A stretch of DNA of 42,114 nucleotides from IMG/VR virus record IMGVR_UViG_3300020129_000172, positions 1 through 42,114 of that record; one strand, written 5' to 3'. Made by a program: the position numbers and the translations under genes. Shown piece after piece: positions 26,091 to 39,479 of the stretch. Each line of letters begins with the position of its first letter. Within the stretch, counting starts at the first letter, position 1. The notes under the pieces are model-generated. The model did no database searches. It was not told where the DNA came from and saw only the letters and a program-made list of their open reading frames with translations. The DNA is from a virus.

Positions 26091-26185
26091 GGACATGGGT
26101 GGGCTGGGCGCGGTCGGTCAGTGAAGGCGTGACAGCGCAAGGTTCGGAGCGGACAGGTTCGGCTTGGATCGGCGGGAACGGAAAT
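26091..26185 (+). repeat. Short 5-bp-periodic GGNNN block
   Basis: Between the nuclease stop and the next gene, G occurs at 16 of 19 positions congruent to 1 modulo 5 and at 15 of 19 of the following positions. Examples are GGTTC GGAGC GGACA GGTTC (26141-26160). It is the same pattern as the larger block at 27570-28295 and on the same strand. No gene fits here. Confidence 0.8.
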
Positions 26186-26211: not shown

Positions 26212-27033
26212 ATGAAGAAGAAGGACGACAGCAAAGACGCCATCGATGTACTAGAAGTGACGAAGGGACTCGCCCACGTTTGCATCGTGGGCGAGTCAGG
26301 TGCGGGACTGATTTGCAATCGACTCAGCGAGAAGGCCCGACGCGAACTCCTGATGCCTGCGCCGAAGCGCAACGCCGCCGAGCGCGCAACGCTATTGAAG
26401 CACAAACCGTACGACGAATTCCGAAATTCTCCGTACCGGCTACCGGAGTCGCTGGCGCTGGTGGATGTCAGCGGCGGCATTGGCACACCGATGCCACCGC
26501 CGGGACCAGTGATCGGCGTGCTGTCGGCGTCATTCAAGAAAGCGATGATGACAGCAGCACTCGATCTGCCCAACACGAAGAAGGCCCAGATCGGACGCCT
26601 TGTCTGGGTGCAGGGACTCTACACCGCAATCTACGGCATCCCGCAAATCATGCTCGCACCCGTCCGGTCGGCCGACATGAACCGCACACCGGACATTCGC
26701 TCCCGCGCCATCCTGCCACGGTGGGCGTGTCGACTGCAGATCGAGTTCGTGCAACCGCTGATGAAAGTCAACGCGGTCACGCGCCTGCTTGCTGCAGCCG
26801 GCCTCTTTATCGGCGTCGGTGATTGGCGCAAGGAAAAAGGGTCGGGGACGTTCGGCGGTTTCCGACTGACCGAAGAAGACGATCCGGAATTCCTGGACAT
26901 CGTCAACAACGGCGGCCGCGCCGCGCAACTCGAAGCCCTGTTAGCGCCGGAATCCTACGACGAAGAAACGGCATCGCTGCTCGCATGGTTCGATGAGGAA
27001 ATCGCACGGCGGCAGGGCAAAGGGGTGGCCTGA
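26212..27033 (+). CDS. Conserved recombination-module protein (GDWRKEK family)
   Basis: This is 273 residues from ATG 26212 behind GGAGGAGGA. The pattern GLICNRLSEKARRELL at the front, VIGVLSASFKKAMMTAALD in the middle, and RLQIEFVQPLMKVNAVTRLL with FIGVGDWRKEKGSGTFGGF at the end belongs to a protein family I know from early regions of temperate phages beside RecT and nuclease genes. Its biochemical role is not established to my knowledge. Both flanks of this gene and its partner are the unusual pentamer blocks, so it may act on them, but that is only positional. Confidence 0.7.
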   Translation: MKKKDDSKDAIDVLEVTKGLAHVCIVGESGAGLICNRLSEKARRELLMPAPKRNAAERATLLKHKPYDEFRNSPYRLPESLALVDVSGGIGTPMPPPGPVIGVLSASFKKAMMTAALDLPNTKKAQIGRLVWVQGLYTAIYGIPQIMLAPVRSADMNRTPDIRSRAILPRWACRLQIEFVQPLMKVNAVTRLLAAAGLFIGVGDWRKEKGSGTFGGFRLTEEDDPEFLDIVNNGGRAAQLEALLAPESYDEETASLLAWFDEEIARRQGKGVA

Positions 27034-27551
27034 TGTCACGGCTCACGGAAACGCACGTCGCGTATCTGGTGACCCTCGAAAAGCAGGGACGCACCAGTGC
27101 GGAAGACGTCCTGGCCGATGCGAAGCGGGCCGAGAGTCCGCTTCACGATCTTTACGATTGGGACGTCACCGCCGCCGCTGAAGCGCACTGGCTCGATCGC
27201 ACGCGCGCAATCATCCGGTTGGTGAAGGTCGTCGTCCACACCGAACACCAGACGATCCGACTGCCGCGCTACATCCGCGATCCGGCGCTGCCATCACACG
27301 AACAGGGCTACGCATCGGTCGAATCGCTGCGGCTGGAATCAACGCTCGCGCATCGTGCCCTTGTTACCGAAATGGAACGGGTCACGTCGTCGCTGCGACG
27401 GGCGCGACACATCGCCGTCGGCCTTGGGCTGGAAGACGACGTCGACGATCTGCTCGCGCGCGTGGCAGGCCTTCGTGAGATTTGGACCGAGCGCAGCGCG
27501 CCGCCACCGTCGGATGGCGACACGGCGGCAGCTGCGTCACCAGCAGCGTGA
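27033..27551 (+). CDS. Conserved early phage protein (SPLH..YDWD type)
   Basis: This is 172 residues from ATG 27033 (TGATG overlap). The sequence RTSAEDVLADAKRAESPLHD, then LYDWDVTAAAEAHWLDRTRA and LPRYIRDP is the pattern of an uncharacterised protein usually encoded next to the preceding family. The C-terminal part is helical with a low-complexity tail (PPPSDGDTAAAASPAA). The pair is probably one functional unit of the recombination or replication module. Confidence 0.7.
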   Translation: MSRLTETHVAYLVTLEKQGRTSAEDVLADAKRAESPLHDLYDWDVTAAAEAHWLDRTRAIIRLVKVVVHTEHQTIRLPRYIRDPALPSHEQGYASVESLRLESTLAHRALVTEMERVTSSLRRARHIAVGLGLEDDVDDLLARVAGLREIWTERSAPPPSDGDTAAAASPAA

Positions 27552-27569
27552 AACAGCAAGTGACGTCGC

Positions 27570-28295
27570 GTGGCAGGACGCGGTGGGGCCGAACTTAGGC
27601 AAGGCGCGGAGAGACGGGGTCAGGTCCGATGCGGTTTGGACCGGCATGACAGGGCGCGGCAGGCGCGGCTCGATCCGGTCAGGGAGCGGCATGACATGGT
27701 GGCACGCGGAATGGTGGGGTGTGGATAGGCTCGGCAGGAACGGCGACGACGGGTTACGTCTGGCGCGGTCACGTCTGGCAACACACGGCGGGCAACGCGG
27801 GGCGACGTTGGGACCGGTAACGAAAGACTCGGCACGGCGGGCCACGCGAGGCGAGACGACACGCGGCAACGCTGGATCTGGCGCGGCAGGCGAGGACGGG
27901 CGGGGCTTCGCGGGGCTTCACATGACCGCGATGGACATGACGAGGCGGGCGCGGTAGGGCGTCACCGTGGAATCGCATCGCATGGCGACGAATGGCGGGA
28001 CGCGGCGGGCAAGGTCAGGACAGGCAGGTCTGGAGTTGGCTTTGCCACGACATCGGCAGGCGTCGAAAGGTTGACTGGGCGTGGAATGGACAGGACTGAC
28101 AACGCAACGCGCGGCAGGTTCGGACCGGGTAAGTCATCGGCGAGATATGGCATGGCGCGGCGCGGATCGATCTGGTCGGGCACGGCGTGGCAGGCACGGC
28201 TACACGCGACTGCGCTGCGATTGGCTAGGTTGCGTTTGGTCCGGCGTGACACGGCGGGCGAAGTAAGGCGACACATGGCGTGACGCGGATAGGCA
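27570..28295 (+). repeat. Large non-coding 5-bp-periodic G-rich block (degenerate GGNNN repeat)
   Basis: About 725 bases without a credible gene. G stands at 28 of 30 positions congruent to 3 modulo 5 between 27633 and 27778. The phase then drifts by single bases and the pattern continues, for example TATGG CATGG CGCGG CGCGG (28146-28165) and TCTGG TCGGG CACGG CGTGG (28171-28190). The three bases between GG pairs vary freely, so it is not a simple tandem repeat. In 27661-27720 I count 28 G against 13 C on the + strand. A 5-bp period cannot serve a codon frame; the several open frames on both strands here are by-products of the missing T/A-rich stops. Confidence 0.85.
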
Positions 28296-28302
28296 GGCAA
28301 CG

Positions 28303-29031
28303 ATGATACCGACACTCGATTTCAACGCACCAGATACCGCAAAGGCCGTCGGCAGCGACCTGGCGGATGCGTCGATGACACTCGCGCAGCGGCTGCGTGG
28401 CTGCACCGTGACCGATGCCGTCTCACTCCAGCAAGCCGTCGACGACCGGCAGACCATCGCCGCCACGCTCGACCAGATCGGCCACTACTTCGATCCGCTG
28501 ATTGCGATGGCGCACAAGCTCCACAAGACGTTGTGCGATCGACGGTCCGAAGTCGCGGAACCGCTGAAGCGGGTGGACACGATGCTACGGGCGGCCATCA
28601 GCGCCTACCACGACGACGAGACGAAACGCCGCCAGCTGCTGGAACGCGAAGCCTCCGAACGGCAGCGGAAGGAACAGCAGGACCGGGCCGCAGCGGCAGC
28701 GGCCGACCTGGAAACGTCCGGCGAGCATGCGCTCGCGGCGTCCGTCTTGGAAGAAGCCATCGCGGCCCCGCTACCGGTCGTCGCCTTGCCGGACATCACT
28801 AAGCAGGTCGACGGCCTGAAGTTCCGCCGCCGCTACTGCTGGCGCTATGCCGGGGGGCCGAACACGATCAAGGACACGCCGCCTGCCGTCATCGCGCGGA
28901 CCCACAAGATCGCACCGCGTGACTTCCTGTGCCTTGACGACATCAAGGTGGGCGCATATGCGCGGGCGATGAAGGGCAGCGGATCGATCCCCGGCGTCGA
29001 GTTCTATCACGTCGATGACCCGGTGCGGTGA
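28303..29031 (+). CDS. Conserved early phage protein with coiled coil
   Basis: In this 242-residue protein, residues 40-135 are a long charged helix (HDDETKRRQLLEREASERQR) with the look of an SMC-like coiled coil. The C-terminal part FRRRYCWRY, then KIAPRDFLCLDDIKVGAYAR and AMKGSGSIPGVEFYHVDD is strongly conserved among temperate phages near recombination and replication genes. Function unproven. It starts just after the G-rich repeat block. Confidence 0.72.
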   Translation: MIPTLDFNAPDTAKAVGSDLADASMTLAQRLRGCTVTDAVSLQQAVDDRQTIAATLDQIGHYFDPLIAMAHKLHKTLCDRRSEVAEPLKRVDTMLRAAISAYHDDETKRRQLLEREASERQRKEQQDRAAAAAADLETSGEHALAASVLEEAIAAPLPVVALPDITKQVDGLKFRRRYCWRYAGGPNTIKDTPPAVIARTHKIAPRDFLCLDDIKVGAYARAMKGSGSIPGVEFYHVDDPVR

Positions 29032-29482: not shown

Positions 29483-29686
29483 ATGGATCGTGAACTGACC
29501 GGCACCATTAAACGCATCGTCGGCGACAAAGGCTTCGGCTTTATCGGCGTCGATGGTGTGGACTACTTCTTCCATCAGTCGTGCTGTGACGACTTCAAAC
29601 AACTCCAACAGGGTGACCGCGTCAGCTTCGTGGTCGTCCGCAGTCCCAAAGGTCCGCGCGCCGATCGGGTCCGCGCCGTGCGGTAA
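29483..29686 (+). CDS. Cold-shock-domain protein
   Basis: This is 67 residues, AAGGAA upstream. The cold-shock fold is clear: GTIKRIVGDKGFGFIGVDG includes the RNP1-type KGFGFI and DYFFHQS is the RNP2-type motif; QGDRVSFVVVRSPKGPRA completes the barrel. Such proteins bind single-stranded RNA or DNA. It stands immediately before the replication initiator gene and beyond the G-rich block, so single-strand binding during early transcription or replication is plausible. Confidence 0.92.
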   Translation: MDRELTGTIKRIVGDKGFGFIGVDGVDYFFHQSCCDDFKQLQQGDRVSFVVVRSPKGPRADRVRAVR

Positions 29687-29693
29687 AGGTGTT

Positions 29694-30338
29694 ATGTCCT
29701 GGCTGAAGATCGACGACCAAATCGCCACCCATCCGAAGATCCTGAAAGCGGGTCCGTCCGCCTCGTGGTTGTGGATCTGCAGCATTGCCTATTCGTCGAA
29801 TCACTTCACCGATGGCTTCATCAGTGATGCCGCGTTGGGGCACCTCGGAATACCGAAGCATGTGCTGAAGCAACTTGTCAGCAGGCTGCTGAAGCAGGCG
29901 TTGTGGGAGCGCGTGAAAGGTGGCTTTCAGGTGCACGATTACCTGCAACATAATCCCTCCGCTGTCGAACGCAGACAGGGGTTAGCGGCGAAGCAAAAGG
30001 CCGGTCAGATCGGTGGTCACCGATCATGGCAACTGCGTCATAAGACAGGGGTTAAGGGACCGAAGCACGCTGCTGAAGCAGACGTCAAGCAGCCTGCTGA
30101 AGCAGACGTCAAGCAGCCTGCTGAACCCCGATCCGATCCGATCCGATCCGATCCGTATAAGAAGGCGGACGCGCCTGCAGCGCGATCCGCCGACACGGTC
30201 CGTGGTACTAACACCGCCGGAAATGGGTCGGCCGGATCGAGACGGGACACTCCAGACGGTGGGCCTGCGGCCCCCGCTTCCGCGCCCGTCGTGCCACCGC
30301 TGTCGCCGGAATTACGGAAACGATTTGGGGTGCCGTGA
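29694..30338 (+). CDS. Replication initiator-like (replisome organizer) protein
   Basis: This is 214 residues from ATG 29694. Residues 1-95 (WLKIDDQIATHPKILKAGPS, ASWLWICSIAYSSN, FTDGFISDAALGHLG, VKGGFQVHDYLQHNPS) match the winged-helix N-terminus of phage replisome-organizer proteins. The middle holds two 8-residue AEADVKQP repeats and a Ser/Asp/Arg stretch, encoded by direct DNA repeats that may be the origin itself, as in lambda O. The C-terminus is proline-rich. A helicase-loader-like gene follows at once. Confidence 0.78.
   Translation: MSWLKIDDQIATHPKILKAGPSASWLWICSIAYSSNHFTDGFISDAALGHLGIPKHVLKQLVSRLLKQALWERVKGGFQVHDYLQHNPSAVERRQGLAAKQKAGQIGGHRSWQLRHKTGVKGPKHAAEADVKQPAEADVKQPAEPRSDPIRSDPYKKADAPAARSADTVRGTNTAGNGSAGSRRDTPDGGPAAPASAPVVPPLSPELRKRFGVP
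29973..30155 (+). repeat. Direct-repeat cluster, probable replication origin inside the initiator gene
   Basis: Three repeat types sit together: AGACAGGGGTTA at 29973-29984 and 30043-30054; a 24-bp unit at 30072-30095 repeated exactly at 30096-30119 with a partial third start; and five tandem ATCCG pentamers at 30131-30155. Iterons inside the initiator gene are the lambda ori arrangement. Only the clustering supports the origin call. Confidence 0.5.
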
Positions 30339-35330: not shown

Positions 35331-36221
35331 ATGAATCCGCGCTTTCCGATTTACATCGTGTCGAAGGGTCGGCATCAACCGACACGCCGCTTGACGTCGC
35401 GGGCCTTCGAAGCGATGGGCGTGCCGTACTTCATCATCGTGGAAGCCGCCGAGTACGACCTGTATGCGGCAGGCATTGATGCGAAGAAGATCCTCGTCCT
35501 CGATCCGGCGTTTCAGGACCGCTACGAAACCTTCGACGACTTAGGCACCAGCAAGAGTAAGGGACCGGGCGCCGCGCGGAACTTTGCATGGACGCATGCA
35601 AAGGCATCCGGCGCTCCATGGCACTGGGTCATGGATGACAACATCCGCCGGTTCTCCCGGCTGCAACACAATTCGAAAACGCGGGCCGGAGACGGCACGA
35701 TCTTCCGCTGCATGGAGGACTTCTGCCTGCGGTACGCCAATGTGGCGATGGCTGGTCCGAACTACGAGCACTTCGTGACGCGCAAGGTCGACACGACGCC
35801 GCCGTACGTGCTGAATACGCGGATCTACAGCTGCAACCTGATTCGCAACGATGCGCCCTTCCACTGGCGTGGCCGCTACAACGAAGACACGGACCTCTCG
35901 CTGCAGATGCTGAAACGCGGCTGGGTCACGGTGCAGTTCAATGCGTTCCTCCAGAAGAAGATGGAAACGCAGACGGTGAAAGGCGGCTGTGATCGGGACT
36001 TCTACGCCGTCGAAGGGACACGGCCGAAGTCGGAAATGCTCGTCCGCATGCATCCGGACGTGGCGCAGCTGGTCTGGAAGTTCGGCCGCTGGCACCATCA
36101 CGTCGACTATCGGCCGTTCAAGCACAATCGCCTCATCCTGGCCGACGGTGTCGTGGTGGCCGACGGGCCGGACGAATACGGGATGGTGCTGGTCGACAAG
36201 CCCAAAGGCATCGGCGCATGA
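35331..36221 (+). CDS. TET-associated-type glycosyltransferase (TAGT family)
   Basis: This is 296 residues starting directly after the ParB-like stop. The family pattern is strong: FPIYIVSKGRH at the N-terminus, YFIIVEAAEYDLYAAG, GAARNFAWTHA, then the acidic motif HWVMDDNIRRF (Asp102, Asp103), NTRIYSCNLIRND, WRGRYNEDTDLSLQMLKRGW (Glu185, Asp186, Asp188) and a late KGGCD. In the literature this family is predicted to add sugars to oxidised (hydroxymethyl) bases in phage DNA. No TET/JBP oxygenase is present in this genome, so the acceptor is uncertain. Start and length fit the family. Confidence 0.8.
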   Translation: MNPRFPIYIVSKGRHQPTRRLTSRAFEAMGVPYFIIVEAAEYDLYAAGIDAKKILVLDPAFQDRYETFDDLGTSKSKGPGAARNFAWTHAKASGAPWHWVMDDNIRRFSRLQHNSKTRAGDGTIFRCMEDFCLRYANVAMAGPNYEHFVTRKVDTTPPYVLNTRIYSCNLIRNDAPFHWRGRYNEDTDLSLQMLKRGWVTVQFNAFLQKKMETQTVKGGCDRDFYAVEGTRPKSEMLVRMHPDVAQLVWKFGRWHHHVDYRPFKHNRLILADGVVVADGPDEYGMVLVDKPKGIGA

Positions 36222-38603: not shown

Positions 38604-39463
38604 TGCATGGGATGGCTCTTTGTGCCGGGATTGGGGGACTGGAACTCGGCGTCGGGTTCGTCCTTGCCGAGTACCGCACCGTCGTGTACGTGGAACGCGA
38701 AGCCTTTGCCGCCGCGCAGCTGGTCGCGCGCATGGCAGCGGGTCAGCTGGCTGCGGCGCCTGTCTGGGACGACGTGCGGACCTTCGACGGCCGACGCTGG
38801 CGTGGCGTCGTGGATTGTGTCACTGCCGGATTCCCCTGCCAGCCGTGGAGTAAAGCCGGACCCGATACCGGCACCGACGATGCCCGCTGGGTCTGGCCGG
38901 ATATCCTCGACCGCATTGGCGAAGTGGGATCCGCGATCGTCTTCTTGGAAAATGTCCCTCCCCTTGTTTCCCGAGGAGGACTGGCCACCGTACTCGGCGG
39001 ACTGGCCGACGGCGGGTACGCTGCGGAATGGGGTTATCTCGCCGCGTCCGCCGTTGGGGCATCCCATGAACGCCTGCGCGTCTTCATCCTGGCCTACCGC
39101 GACGGCCTCCGACTCCGACGACAAGTGGCCGACCCCGGCGAGCCGCGACTACAAGGGCGAGAACGCCAGCGTGCATCTCGATCACGCCAGCGGCCGGAAA
39201 CATCTCGACCAGCTGCCGAACTTCATCGCGTACTGTTTCCCCCTCGCCCCACCGACACCGCCGGGTGGCGTTTCGTCTTCGCCGATCGGCCGGACCTCGC
39301 CCCGGCACTCAGTGCCGCGCATCAACGTCAGCTTTGTGGAATGGCTGATGGGCTTTCCTATCGGCTGGACCGACTCCGGGCTGTCGGCAACGGAGTGGTC
39401 CCGCTACAGGCAGCGTATGCGTTTGTCGCTTTGGCGACTCGCGCAGGCCTGTGGGCAGACTGA
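38603..39463 (+). CDS. C5-cytosine DNA methyltransferase
   Basis: This is 286 residues from ATG 38603 (GTG 38600 possible). Motif I LCAGIGGLELG, motif IV GFPCQPWS (catalytic Cys79), motif VI ENVPPL (Glu116), motif VIII GASHERLRVFILA and the closing RLRAVGNGVVPLQAAYAF (motifs IX-X) are all present. The C-terminal part (DLAPALSA...GMADGLSYRLDR) is normal for one subfamily. The target-recognition region between motifs VIII and IX is Arg-rich and unusually poor in character, and in the +1 frame the same DNA encodes a different methyltransferase-type segment. Its role would be self-protection from host restriction, or supply of modified C. Confidence 0.9.
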   Translation: MHGMALCAGIGGLELGVGFVLAEYRTVVYVEREAFAAAQLVARMAAGQLAAAPVWDDVRTFDGRRWRGVVDCVTAGFPCQPWSKAGPDTGTDDARWVWPDILDRIGEVGSAIVFLENVPPLVSRGGLATVLGGLADGGYAAEWGYLAASAVGASHERLRVFILAYRDGLRLRRQVADPGEPRLQGRERQRASRSRQRPETSRPAAELHRVLFPPRPTDTAGWRFVFADRPDLAPALSAAHQRQLCGMADGLSYRLDRLRAVGNGVVPLQAAYAFVALATRAGLWAD

Positions 39464-39479
39464 ATTAGTGAAGCGTTAA
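38607..39479 (+). CDS. Overlapping +1-frame reading frame with methyltransferase-type TRD pattern
   Basis: This frame is open for 290 codons inside the C5-methyltransferase gene. From about 38925 it reads RSSSWKMSLPLFPEEDWPPY, DWPTAGTLRNGVISPRPPLG, KWPTPASRDYKGENASVHLD and NVSFVEWLMGFPIGWTDSG. These are family-specific phrases (SSSWKTS, GTMRNG, WPTP..RD.KG, FVEWLMGFP.GWTD) seen in the recognition part of related phage methyltransferases. The part before about 38925 is not convincing and may not be translated. ATG 38952 is a possible internal start. Expression could be by internal initiation or frameshift; neither is proven. Confidence 0.55.
   Translation: MGWLFVPGLGDWNSASGSSLPSTAPSCTWNAKPLPPRSWSRAWQRVSWLRRLSGTTCGPSTADAGVASWIVSLPDSPASRGVKPDPIPAPTMPAGSGRISSTALAKWDPRSSSWKMSLPLFPEEDWPPYSADWPTAGTLRNGVISPRPPLGHPMNACASSSWPTATASDSDDKWPTPASRDYKGENASVHLDHASGRKHLDQLPNFIAYCFPLAPPTPPGGVSSSPIGRTSPRHSVPRINVSFVEWLMGFPIGWTDSGLSATEWSRYRQRMRLSLWRLAQACGQTELVKR

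What the first reader, a model, noticed from the sequence alone, without database searches (positions are those of the whole stretch)
27570..28295. Large non-coding block with a strict 5-bp GGNNN rhythm on one strand
By direct reading, G fills 28 of 30 positions congruent to 3 modulo 5 from 27633 to 27778, and the same rhythm continues with small phase slips to about 28295. The three bases between the GG pairs are nearly free, so it is neither a tandem repeat nor a codon pattern (5 is not a multiple of 3). The strand is G-rich (28 G, 13 C in 27661-27720). Such (GGN3)n sequence could form two-layer G-quadruplexes on the displaced or transcribed strand, or load a single-strand protein in register. 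It lies inside the RecT/nuclease/initiator module and close to a cold-shock protein, so a recombination, replication or RNA role is possible. I cannot say whether this element class has been described.
Basis: partly seen in the sequence, partly recalled or inferred. Interest (0 to 1): 0.87.

Follow-up and report, generated by a model that had tools for sequence, protein, structure and literature searches.

The report
Phage VIPR guide-RNA array
The odd five-base rhythm is a stack of guide-RNA genes belonging to a VIPR system, a recently described relative of CRISPR that phages use against each other, and related phages here appear to aim their guides at one another's genes.

Summary
A roughly 740-bp non-coding block (27561-28297, +) has period-5 G power of 20.8; resampled sequence never exceeds 10.8, and period 3 is absent. 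A search of IMG/VR for (GGCRN)7 by DNA pattern alone returned 120 stretches. In 81 of them the locus also holds a homologue of the gene upstream of the block (26212-27033), on the array's strand; among 120 pattern-matched bacterial contigs only 5 do. That family's profile hits PDB 36pp, 'SUSP1 Vipr protein' (E 1.5e-46), and the AlphaFold model matches Csm3/Cas7 RAMPs. The locus is therefore a VIPR system (PMC13142463): vipr, a vap-like gene (27033-27551) and a compact vrRNA array of about 10-12 guides. I tested the published code (NN read, one target base skipped) on this lineage. Guides of two sister phages match window genes 9/9, one of them vipr, in codon phase, while their own copies mismatch; no other skip length and no shuffle gave 9/9. 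Two window guides resemble relatives' head-protease and ParB/methylase genes. Differences from the published type II systems: a looser scaffold ([G/C][G/A]Y) and guides separated only by 4-mers. Expression and function were not tested. New member of a known kind.

The parts
26212..27033 (+). vipr: minimal RAMP protein (PHROG 4652); ORF extends upstream to a TTG at 26164, ATG at 26212 more likely
   Evidence: PHROG 4652 E 1.2e-7; family profile hits PDB 36pp SUSP1 Vipr E 1.5e-46; AlphaFold model pLDDT 88.6 matches Csm3/Cas7
27033..27551 (+). candidate vap (vipr-accessory) gene, PHROG 15946; biochemical function unknown
   Evidence: PHROG 15946 E 1.5e-10; homologue in 35 of 120 pattern loci, nearly always with vipr; model pLDDT 91.4, no PDB fold match
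27561..28297 (+). vrRNA array: [G/C][G/A]Y-NN pentamers with GGC[A/G] 4-mer delimiters, about 10-12 guides; fills the gap between vap and the next gene (28303)
   Evidence: HMM score 244.7, 15 slips; unit composition and segmentation
27598..27657 (+). guide of 12 units, NN: AA GC GA GG CA CC GC TT CC AT AG GC
   Evidence: segmentation; weak protein-level similarity to L263 NALGQPLFPSMT
27683..27732 (+). guide (10 in-phase units), decodes to A[IM][IM]GA[IM]GVYS; best match S49 head protease AMVGSIGVYA/T of relatives
   Evidence: 17/20 bases at 1-nt skip in L272:10718 and L248:6728, 3 of 2000 shuffles as good at protein level
27737..27786 (+). guide of 10 units, NN: AC GA CG TA CT GC CA CT AA AC; target not found
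   Evidence: segmentation; no exact target in IMG/VR
28139..28188 (+). guide (10 in-phase units), decodes to [DE][IM][IM]AASLRTV; best match DMIAAALRSV in a ParB/methylase gene of L244's genome
   Evidence: 18/20 bases at 1-nt skip in L272:388, 2 of 2000 shuffles as good at protein level
28193..28252 (+). guide of 12 units; target not found
   Evidence: segmentation
26986..27012 (+). site inside vipr matched 9/9, codon-phased (WFDEEIARR), by a guide of sister phage L245
2355..2381 (+). site in a small ORF (2172-2399) matched 9/9, codon-phased (EFTTATYRR), by a guide of sister phage L244
26077..26176 (+). weak second period-5 stretch just upstream of vipr; candidate upstream vrRNA, borderline
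   Evidence: HMM score 29; period-5 power close to the top of resampled sequence; not seen upstream of vipr in L244, L245 or L246

Best explanation
The block is the vrRNA array of a phage VIPR system. It is transcribed on the + strand and yields guide RNAs of roughly 10-15 pentamers. Vipr subunits, each a minimal Cas7/Csm3-like RAMP, would line up along the RNA; the [G/C][G/A]Y part is the scaffold held by protein, and the NN pairs of all units together read double-stranded DNA with one target base skipped between pairs. The bound complex would silence genes of competing phages. Shown here: the array statistics, the linkage to vipr and a vap-like gene, the RAMP fold, and that two guides of sister phages decode, at a 1-nt skip only, to codon-phased sites in the window phage that the guide's own phage does not match. 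Inferred from the published SUSP1 work: transcription, RNP assembly, DNA binding and repression.
For: DNA-pattern-only search recovers vipr in 81 of 120 viral loci against 5 of 120 bacterial ones. Converse: the three IMG/VR relatives found by protein (L244-L246) all carry long arrays, as do isolates Donkeykong, Zizzle, ODay and Pipp; LittleE has several short blocks. Vipr profile to PDB 36pp E 1.5e-46; RAMP fold. Segments of 10-15 units against the published 9-16. Code test: 2 of 154 nine-unit stretches matched 9/9 at 1-nt skip, 0 of 462 at other skips, 0 of 1848 shuffles; both sites in codon phase, with mismatches in the guide's own phage. Window guides 27683 and 28139 resemble relatives' genes in codon phase.
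Against: The scaffold is looser than GGY (position 1 G 79%, position 2 G 74%); part of this could be decay. No exact target of a window guide was found in IMG/VR; the one 9/9 hit (L247) looks like chance. No conserved 3' tail as in SUSP1 was found. The VIPR type is not assigned. No RNA or functional data.
Confidence: 0.96

Rival explanations
1. A structural DNA or RNA element: (GGN3)n forms two-layer G-quadruplexes or loads a recombination or single-strand protein (RecT, cold-shock protein) in register.
For: The strand is G-rich with GG every 5 nt, and recT lies 2.3 kb upstream.
Against: Position 3 is mostly pyrimidine and the NN pairs carry decodable target information; across loci the constant neighbour is vipr, and many loci with the array are in different phage contexts.
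Confidence: 0.02
2. A decaying VIPR array: the system was active in an ancestor, but the loose scaffold of the window reflects loss of function.
For: Scaffold G is 74-79% here, against 98-100% in L050 and L072; no exact targets were found for window guides.
Against: Three relatives found by protein have equally or nearly as loose scaffolds; the L244 and L245 guides with perfect targets contain several non-GGY units; vipr and vap frames are intact.
Confidence: 0.12
3. A protein-coding repeat region.
For: Open frames of 60-200 aa overlap parts of the block; Donkeykong's array is annotated as gp48.
Against: Fifteen frame slips, no period 3, at most 54% ORF cover.
Confidence: 0.005

Closest known systems
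VIPR systems, type II (Escherichia phage SUSP1 and the Pseudomonas fulva prophage; PMC13142463)
   Same: Phage-encoded RAMP-fold Vipr, a small accessory gene, flanking non-coding vrRNAs of GGY/NN pentamers, 1-nt-skip codon-phased targets in competing phages including other VIPR genes.
   Different: Scaffold relaxed to [G/C][G/A]Y; about 10-12 guides abut with only GGC[A/G] 4-mers between them and no 3' tail was recognised; the accessory gene is PHROG 15946, while the accessory-position gene of SUSP2 is not matched by that HMM.
Class 1 CRISPR-Cas RAMPs (Cas7, Csm3)
   Same: Predicted fold of the protein; guide RNA coated by RAMP subunits (by analogy).
   Different: No CRISPR repeats; pentamer rather than 6-nt register; noncontiguous pairing.
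TRAP (trp RNA-binding attenuation protein) targets
   Same: Protein oligomer reading a roughly 5-nt RNA repeat (recalled; a lead only).
   Different: The neighbouring protein is a RAMP, and the variable bases here carry target information.

Membership tests
VIPR | Vipr protein: RAMP homologue with a single RRM core and G-loop | tested here: met
   Profile to PDB 36pp E 1.5e-46; fold matches Csm3/Cas7; conserved glycine-rich C-terminal motif
VIPR | vrRNA of 9-16 pentamers, conserved GGY alternating with hypervariable NN | tested here: met
   Segments of 10-15 units; scaffold relaxed to [G/C][G/A]Y, so met as a related consensus
VIPR | Small accessory gene (vap) next to vipr | tested here: met
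   27033-27551, PHROG 15946, recurs with vipr; whether it is one of the published vap1-6 is unknown
VIPR | Targets read with NN and a 1-nt skip | tested here: met
   Met for sister phages' guides; only suggestive for the window's own guides
VIPR | Structured invariant 3' tail after the repeats (as in type II) | tested here: inconclusive
   No long repeated tail in the block; only 4-mer delimiters; the preprint reports other array architectures
VIPR | vrRNA is expressed, binds Vipr and directs repression | not testable with these tools
   Needs sRNA-seq, pull-down and a reporter
CRISPR-Cas | CRISPR repeats and cas genes | tested here: not met
   No long direct repeats in the block; no cas family in the neighbouring genes scanned

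The most novel reading that the evidence does not exclude
This lineage is a distinct VIPR form: tightly abutting guides without tails, a relaxed [G/C][G/A]Y scaffold that still works, and a running exchange in which sister phages aim guides at each other's conserved genes (vipr, head protease, ParB/methylase) and protect their own copies by changing the first two bases of codons in the target, such as AGG for CGN.
Probability: 0.5. Interest if true: 0.72.

Novelty: new member of a known kind. Interest (0 to 1): 0.6.

Why it matters
It supports, from sequence alone and in a lineage apparently not characterised in the preprint, that VIPR guides are read with a 1-nt skip, and gives concrete phage-against-phage target pairs in which the guide's own phage is mismatched. 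It also shows how to find such arrays: a DNA pattern scan alone recovers dozens of VIPR loci in IMG/VR, and existing annotations call parts of them genes (Donkeykong gp48).

Tried and rejected
Rfam: no match in the window or in L064/L024/L043. blastn of the block against phages: only weak pieces, one of them in Zizzle and Donkeykong. The downstream gene 28303-29031 has no relatives in viral contigs and is not taken as part of the module. Paper searches for pentanucleotide repeats led nowhere until the PDB name 'Vipr' gave the term. Testing 368 guides from all loci against the loci on hand gave no general excess for any skip; only the sister-phage pair stood out. Exact IMG/VR scans with four window guides gave one hit, L247:5667, 9/9 but antisense of a likely structural gene with mismatched flanks and about one expected by chance; rejected. 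Guide 27598 resembles NALGQPLFPSMT in L263 only weakly. Vap fold search: nothing. I also considered a chi-like decoy, a TRAP-like ring and neutral microsatellite decay; all lose to the vipr linkage and the decoding.

Full report
What is there. The block 27561-28297 shows period-5 G power of 20.8, against at most 10.8 in resampled sequence and 9.6 elsewhere in the window; period 3 is absent. A phase HMM gives a unit of [G/C][G/A][C/T/A] followed by two nearly free bases. The slips are mostly 4-mers GGC[A/G]; candidates at 27658, 27733, 27787, 27836, 27885, 27944, 28004, 28055, 28113, 28189 and 28253 give segments of 49-76 nt, or 10-15 units. Some of these boundaries (27944, 28055) are my reading of the motif list rather than HMM slips.

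How it was identified. An HMM of the gene 5' of the window's array (26212-27033, PHROG 4652) found a homologue in 81 of these loci, and of the next gene (27033-27551, PHROG 15946) in 35; arrays lie on the strand of the protein gene. In 120 bacterial contigs matched by a similar pattern only 5 have the homologue, and the hits there are mostly short repeats without slips. In isolates, Mycobacterium phages Donkeykong and Zizzle carry array, PHROG 4652 and PHROG 15946 together. Starting instead from the protein, three relatives (L244, L245, L246) all have long arrays, as do Gordonia phages ODay and Pipp; LittleE has several short ones, and Medea1 and SUSP2 score weakly with this GGC-trained detector.

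What the protein is. A profile of 70 homologues hits one PDB entry with confidence, 36pp 'SUSP1 Vipr protein', E 1.5e-46. The window protein's AlphaFold model (pLDDT 88.6) matches Csm3 and Cas7 chains of type III-A and type VII complexes, with modest TM-scores of 0.3-0.5. The preprint PMC13142463 describes VIPR: Vipr RAMP, vap gene, and vrRNAs of 9-16 YNNGG repeats that read double-stranded DNA through the NN pairs with one skipped base, used between phages. The window fits in locus layout, protein and array.

Testing the code here. I took in-phase nine-unit stretches from the arrays of the window and its three relatives (154) and searched about 4.8 Mb of fetched sequence (both strands counted) with arrays masked. 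At a 1-nt skip two are matched 9/9; at 0, 2 or 3 nt none of 462, and none of 1848 shuffles (L247, fetched by an exact scan with a window guide, was left out). One is an L245 guide (TG TT GA GA GA AT GC CG CG) that matches TGG TTC GAx GAG GAx ATC GCx CGx CGx in vipr of the window (26986) and of L244; L245's own vipr reads ATT TCT AGG CGT at the end of that stretch, two consecutive codon changes. The other is an L244 guide (GA TT AC AC GC AC TA CG CG) that matches the window at 2355 and L249 at 7030, which differ from each other only at skipped bases over the nine codons; L244's own copy has 6 of 9. Both are in codon phase. Both guides contain several non-GGY scaffold units, so the looser scaffold seems tolerated (inference).

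The window's own guides. Guide 27683 decodes to A[IM][IM]GA[IM]GVYS and best matches AMVGSIGVYA/T of the S49 head protease in L244's genome and in L248 (17/20 bases; the window's own copy 15/20). Guide 28139 decodes to [DE][IM][IM]AASLRTV and best matches DMIAAALRSV in a ParB/methylase gene of L244 (18/20). Shuffles do as well in 3 and 2 of 2000. With about ten guides and two orientations tested this is suggestive, not proof. No exact target of a window guide was found in IMG/VR, and the single 9/9 hit in L247 is probably chance.

Array turnover. Homology between the window and L244 (81% over vipr-vap) stops at 27529, at the array; within the arrays only short patches align. This fits hypervariable guides.

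Limits. Expression, processing and silencing are inferred from the published SUSP1 system. The accessory protein has no fold match, and the VIPR type is unassigned because the paper's supplementary data were not readable here. The relaxed scaffold may fall under the preprint's 'related consensus', which I could not check. Verdict: a new member of VIPR, confidence 0.96.

Noticed in passing
L064, 7228-8326 (- strand): GGY/NN blocks of about 50-100 nt alternate with eight copies of a hairpin GGGCCGCAY...RTGCGGATTTGC whose inner stem changes on both sides (GGTGG/CCACC, GATGA/TCATC, GGTAG/CTATC); probably a structured vrRNA tail. No Rfam match.
   Followed up: partly
L024 1964-3552 and L043 849-1571: Arrays with other separators: a conserved sequence with GGGAGCAGCAGCATCCGGCG...AAAGGGATGGAC in L024 and GGAACG in L043; likely other VIPR array architectures.
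   Followed up: no
L242 4986-5372 and L243 4876-5064: Annotated genes Donkeykong gp48 and Zizzle gp53 lie over VIPR arrays and are probably not real genes.
   Followed up: partly
window 30063-30155: Tandem repeats (24-bp AAGCAGCCTGCTGAAGCAGACGTC x2.6 and CCGAT x5.6) inside the replication-initiation-like gene 29553-30338; possibly origin iterons.
   Followed up: no
window 35331-36221 and 38607-39479: A glucosyltransferase-like protein (PHROG 842) and a DNA methyltransferase suggest that this phage modifies its DNA.
   Followed up: no
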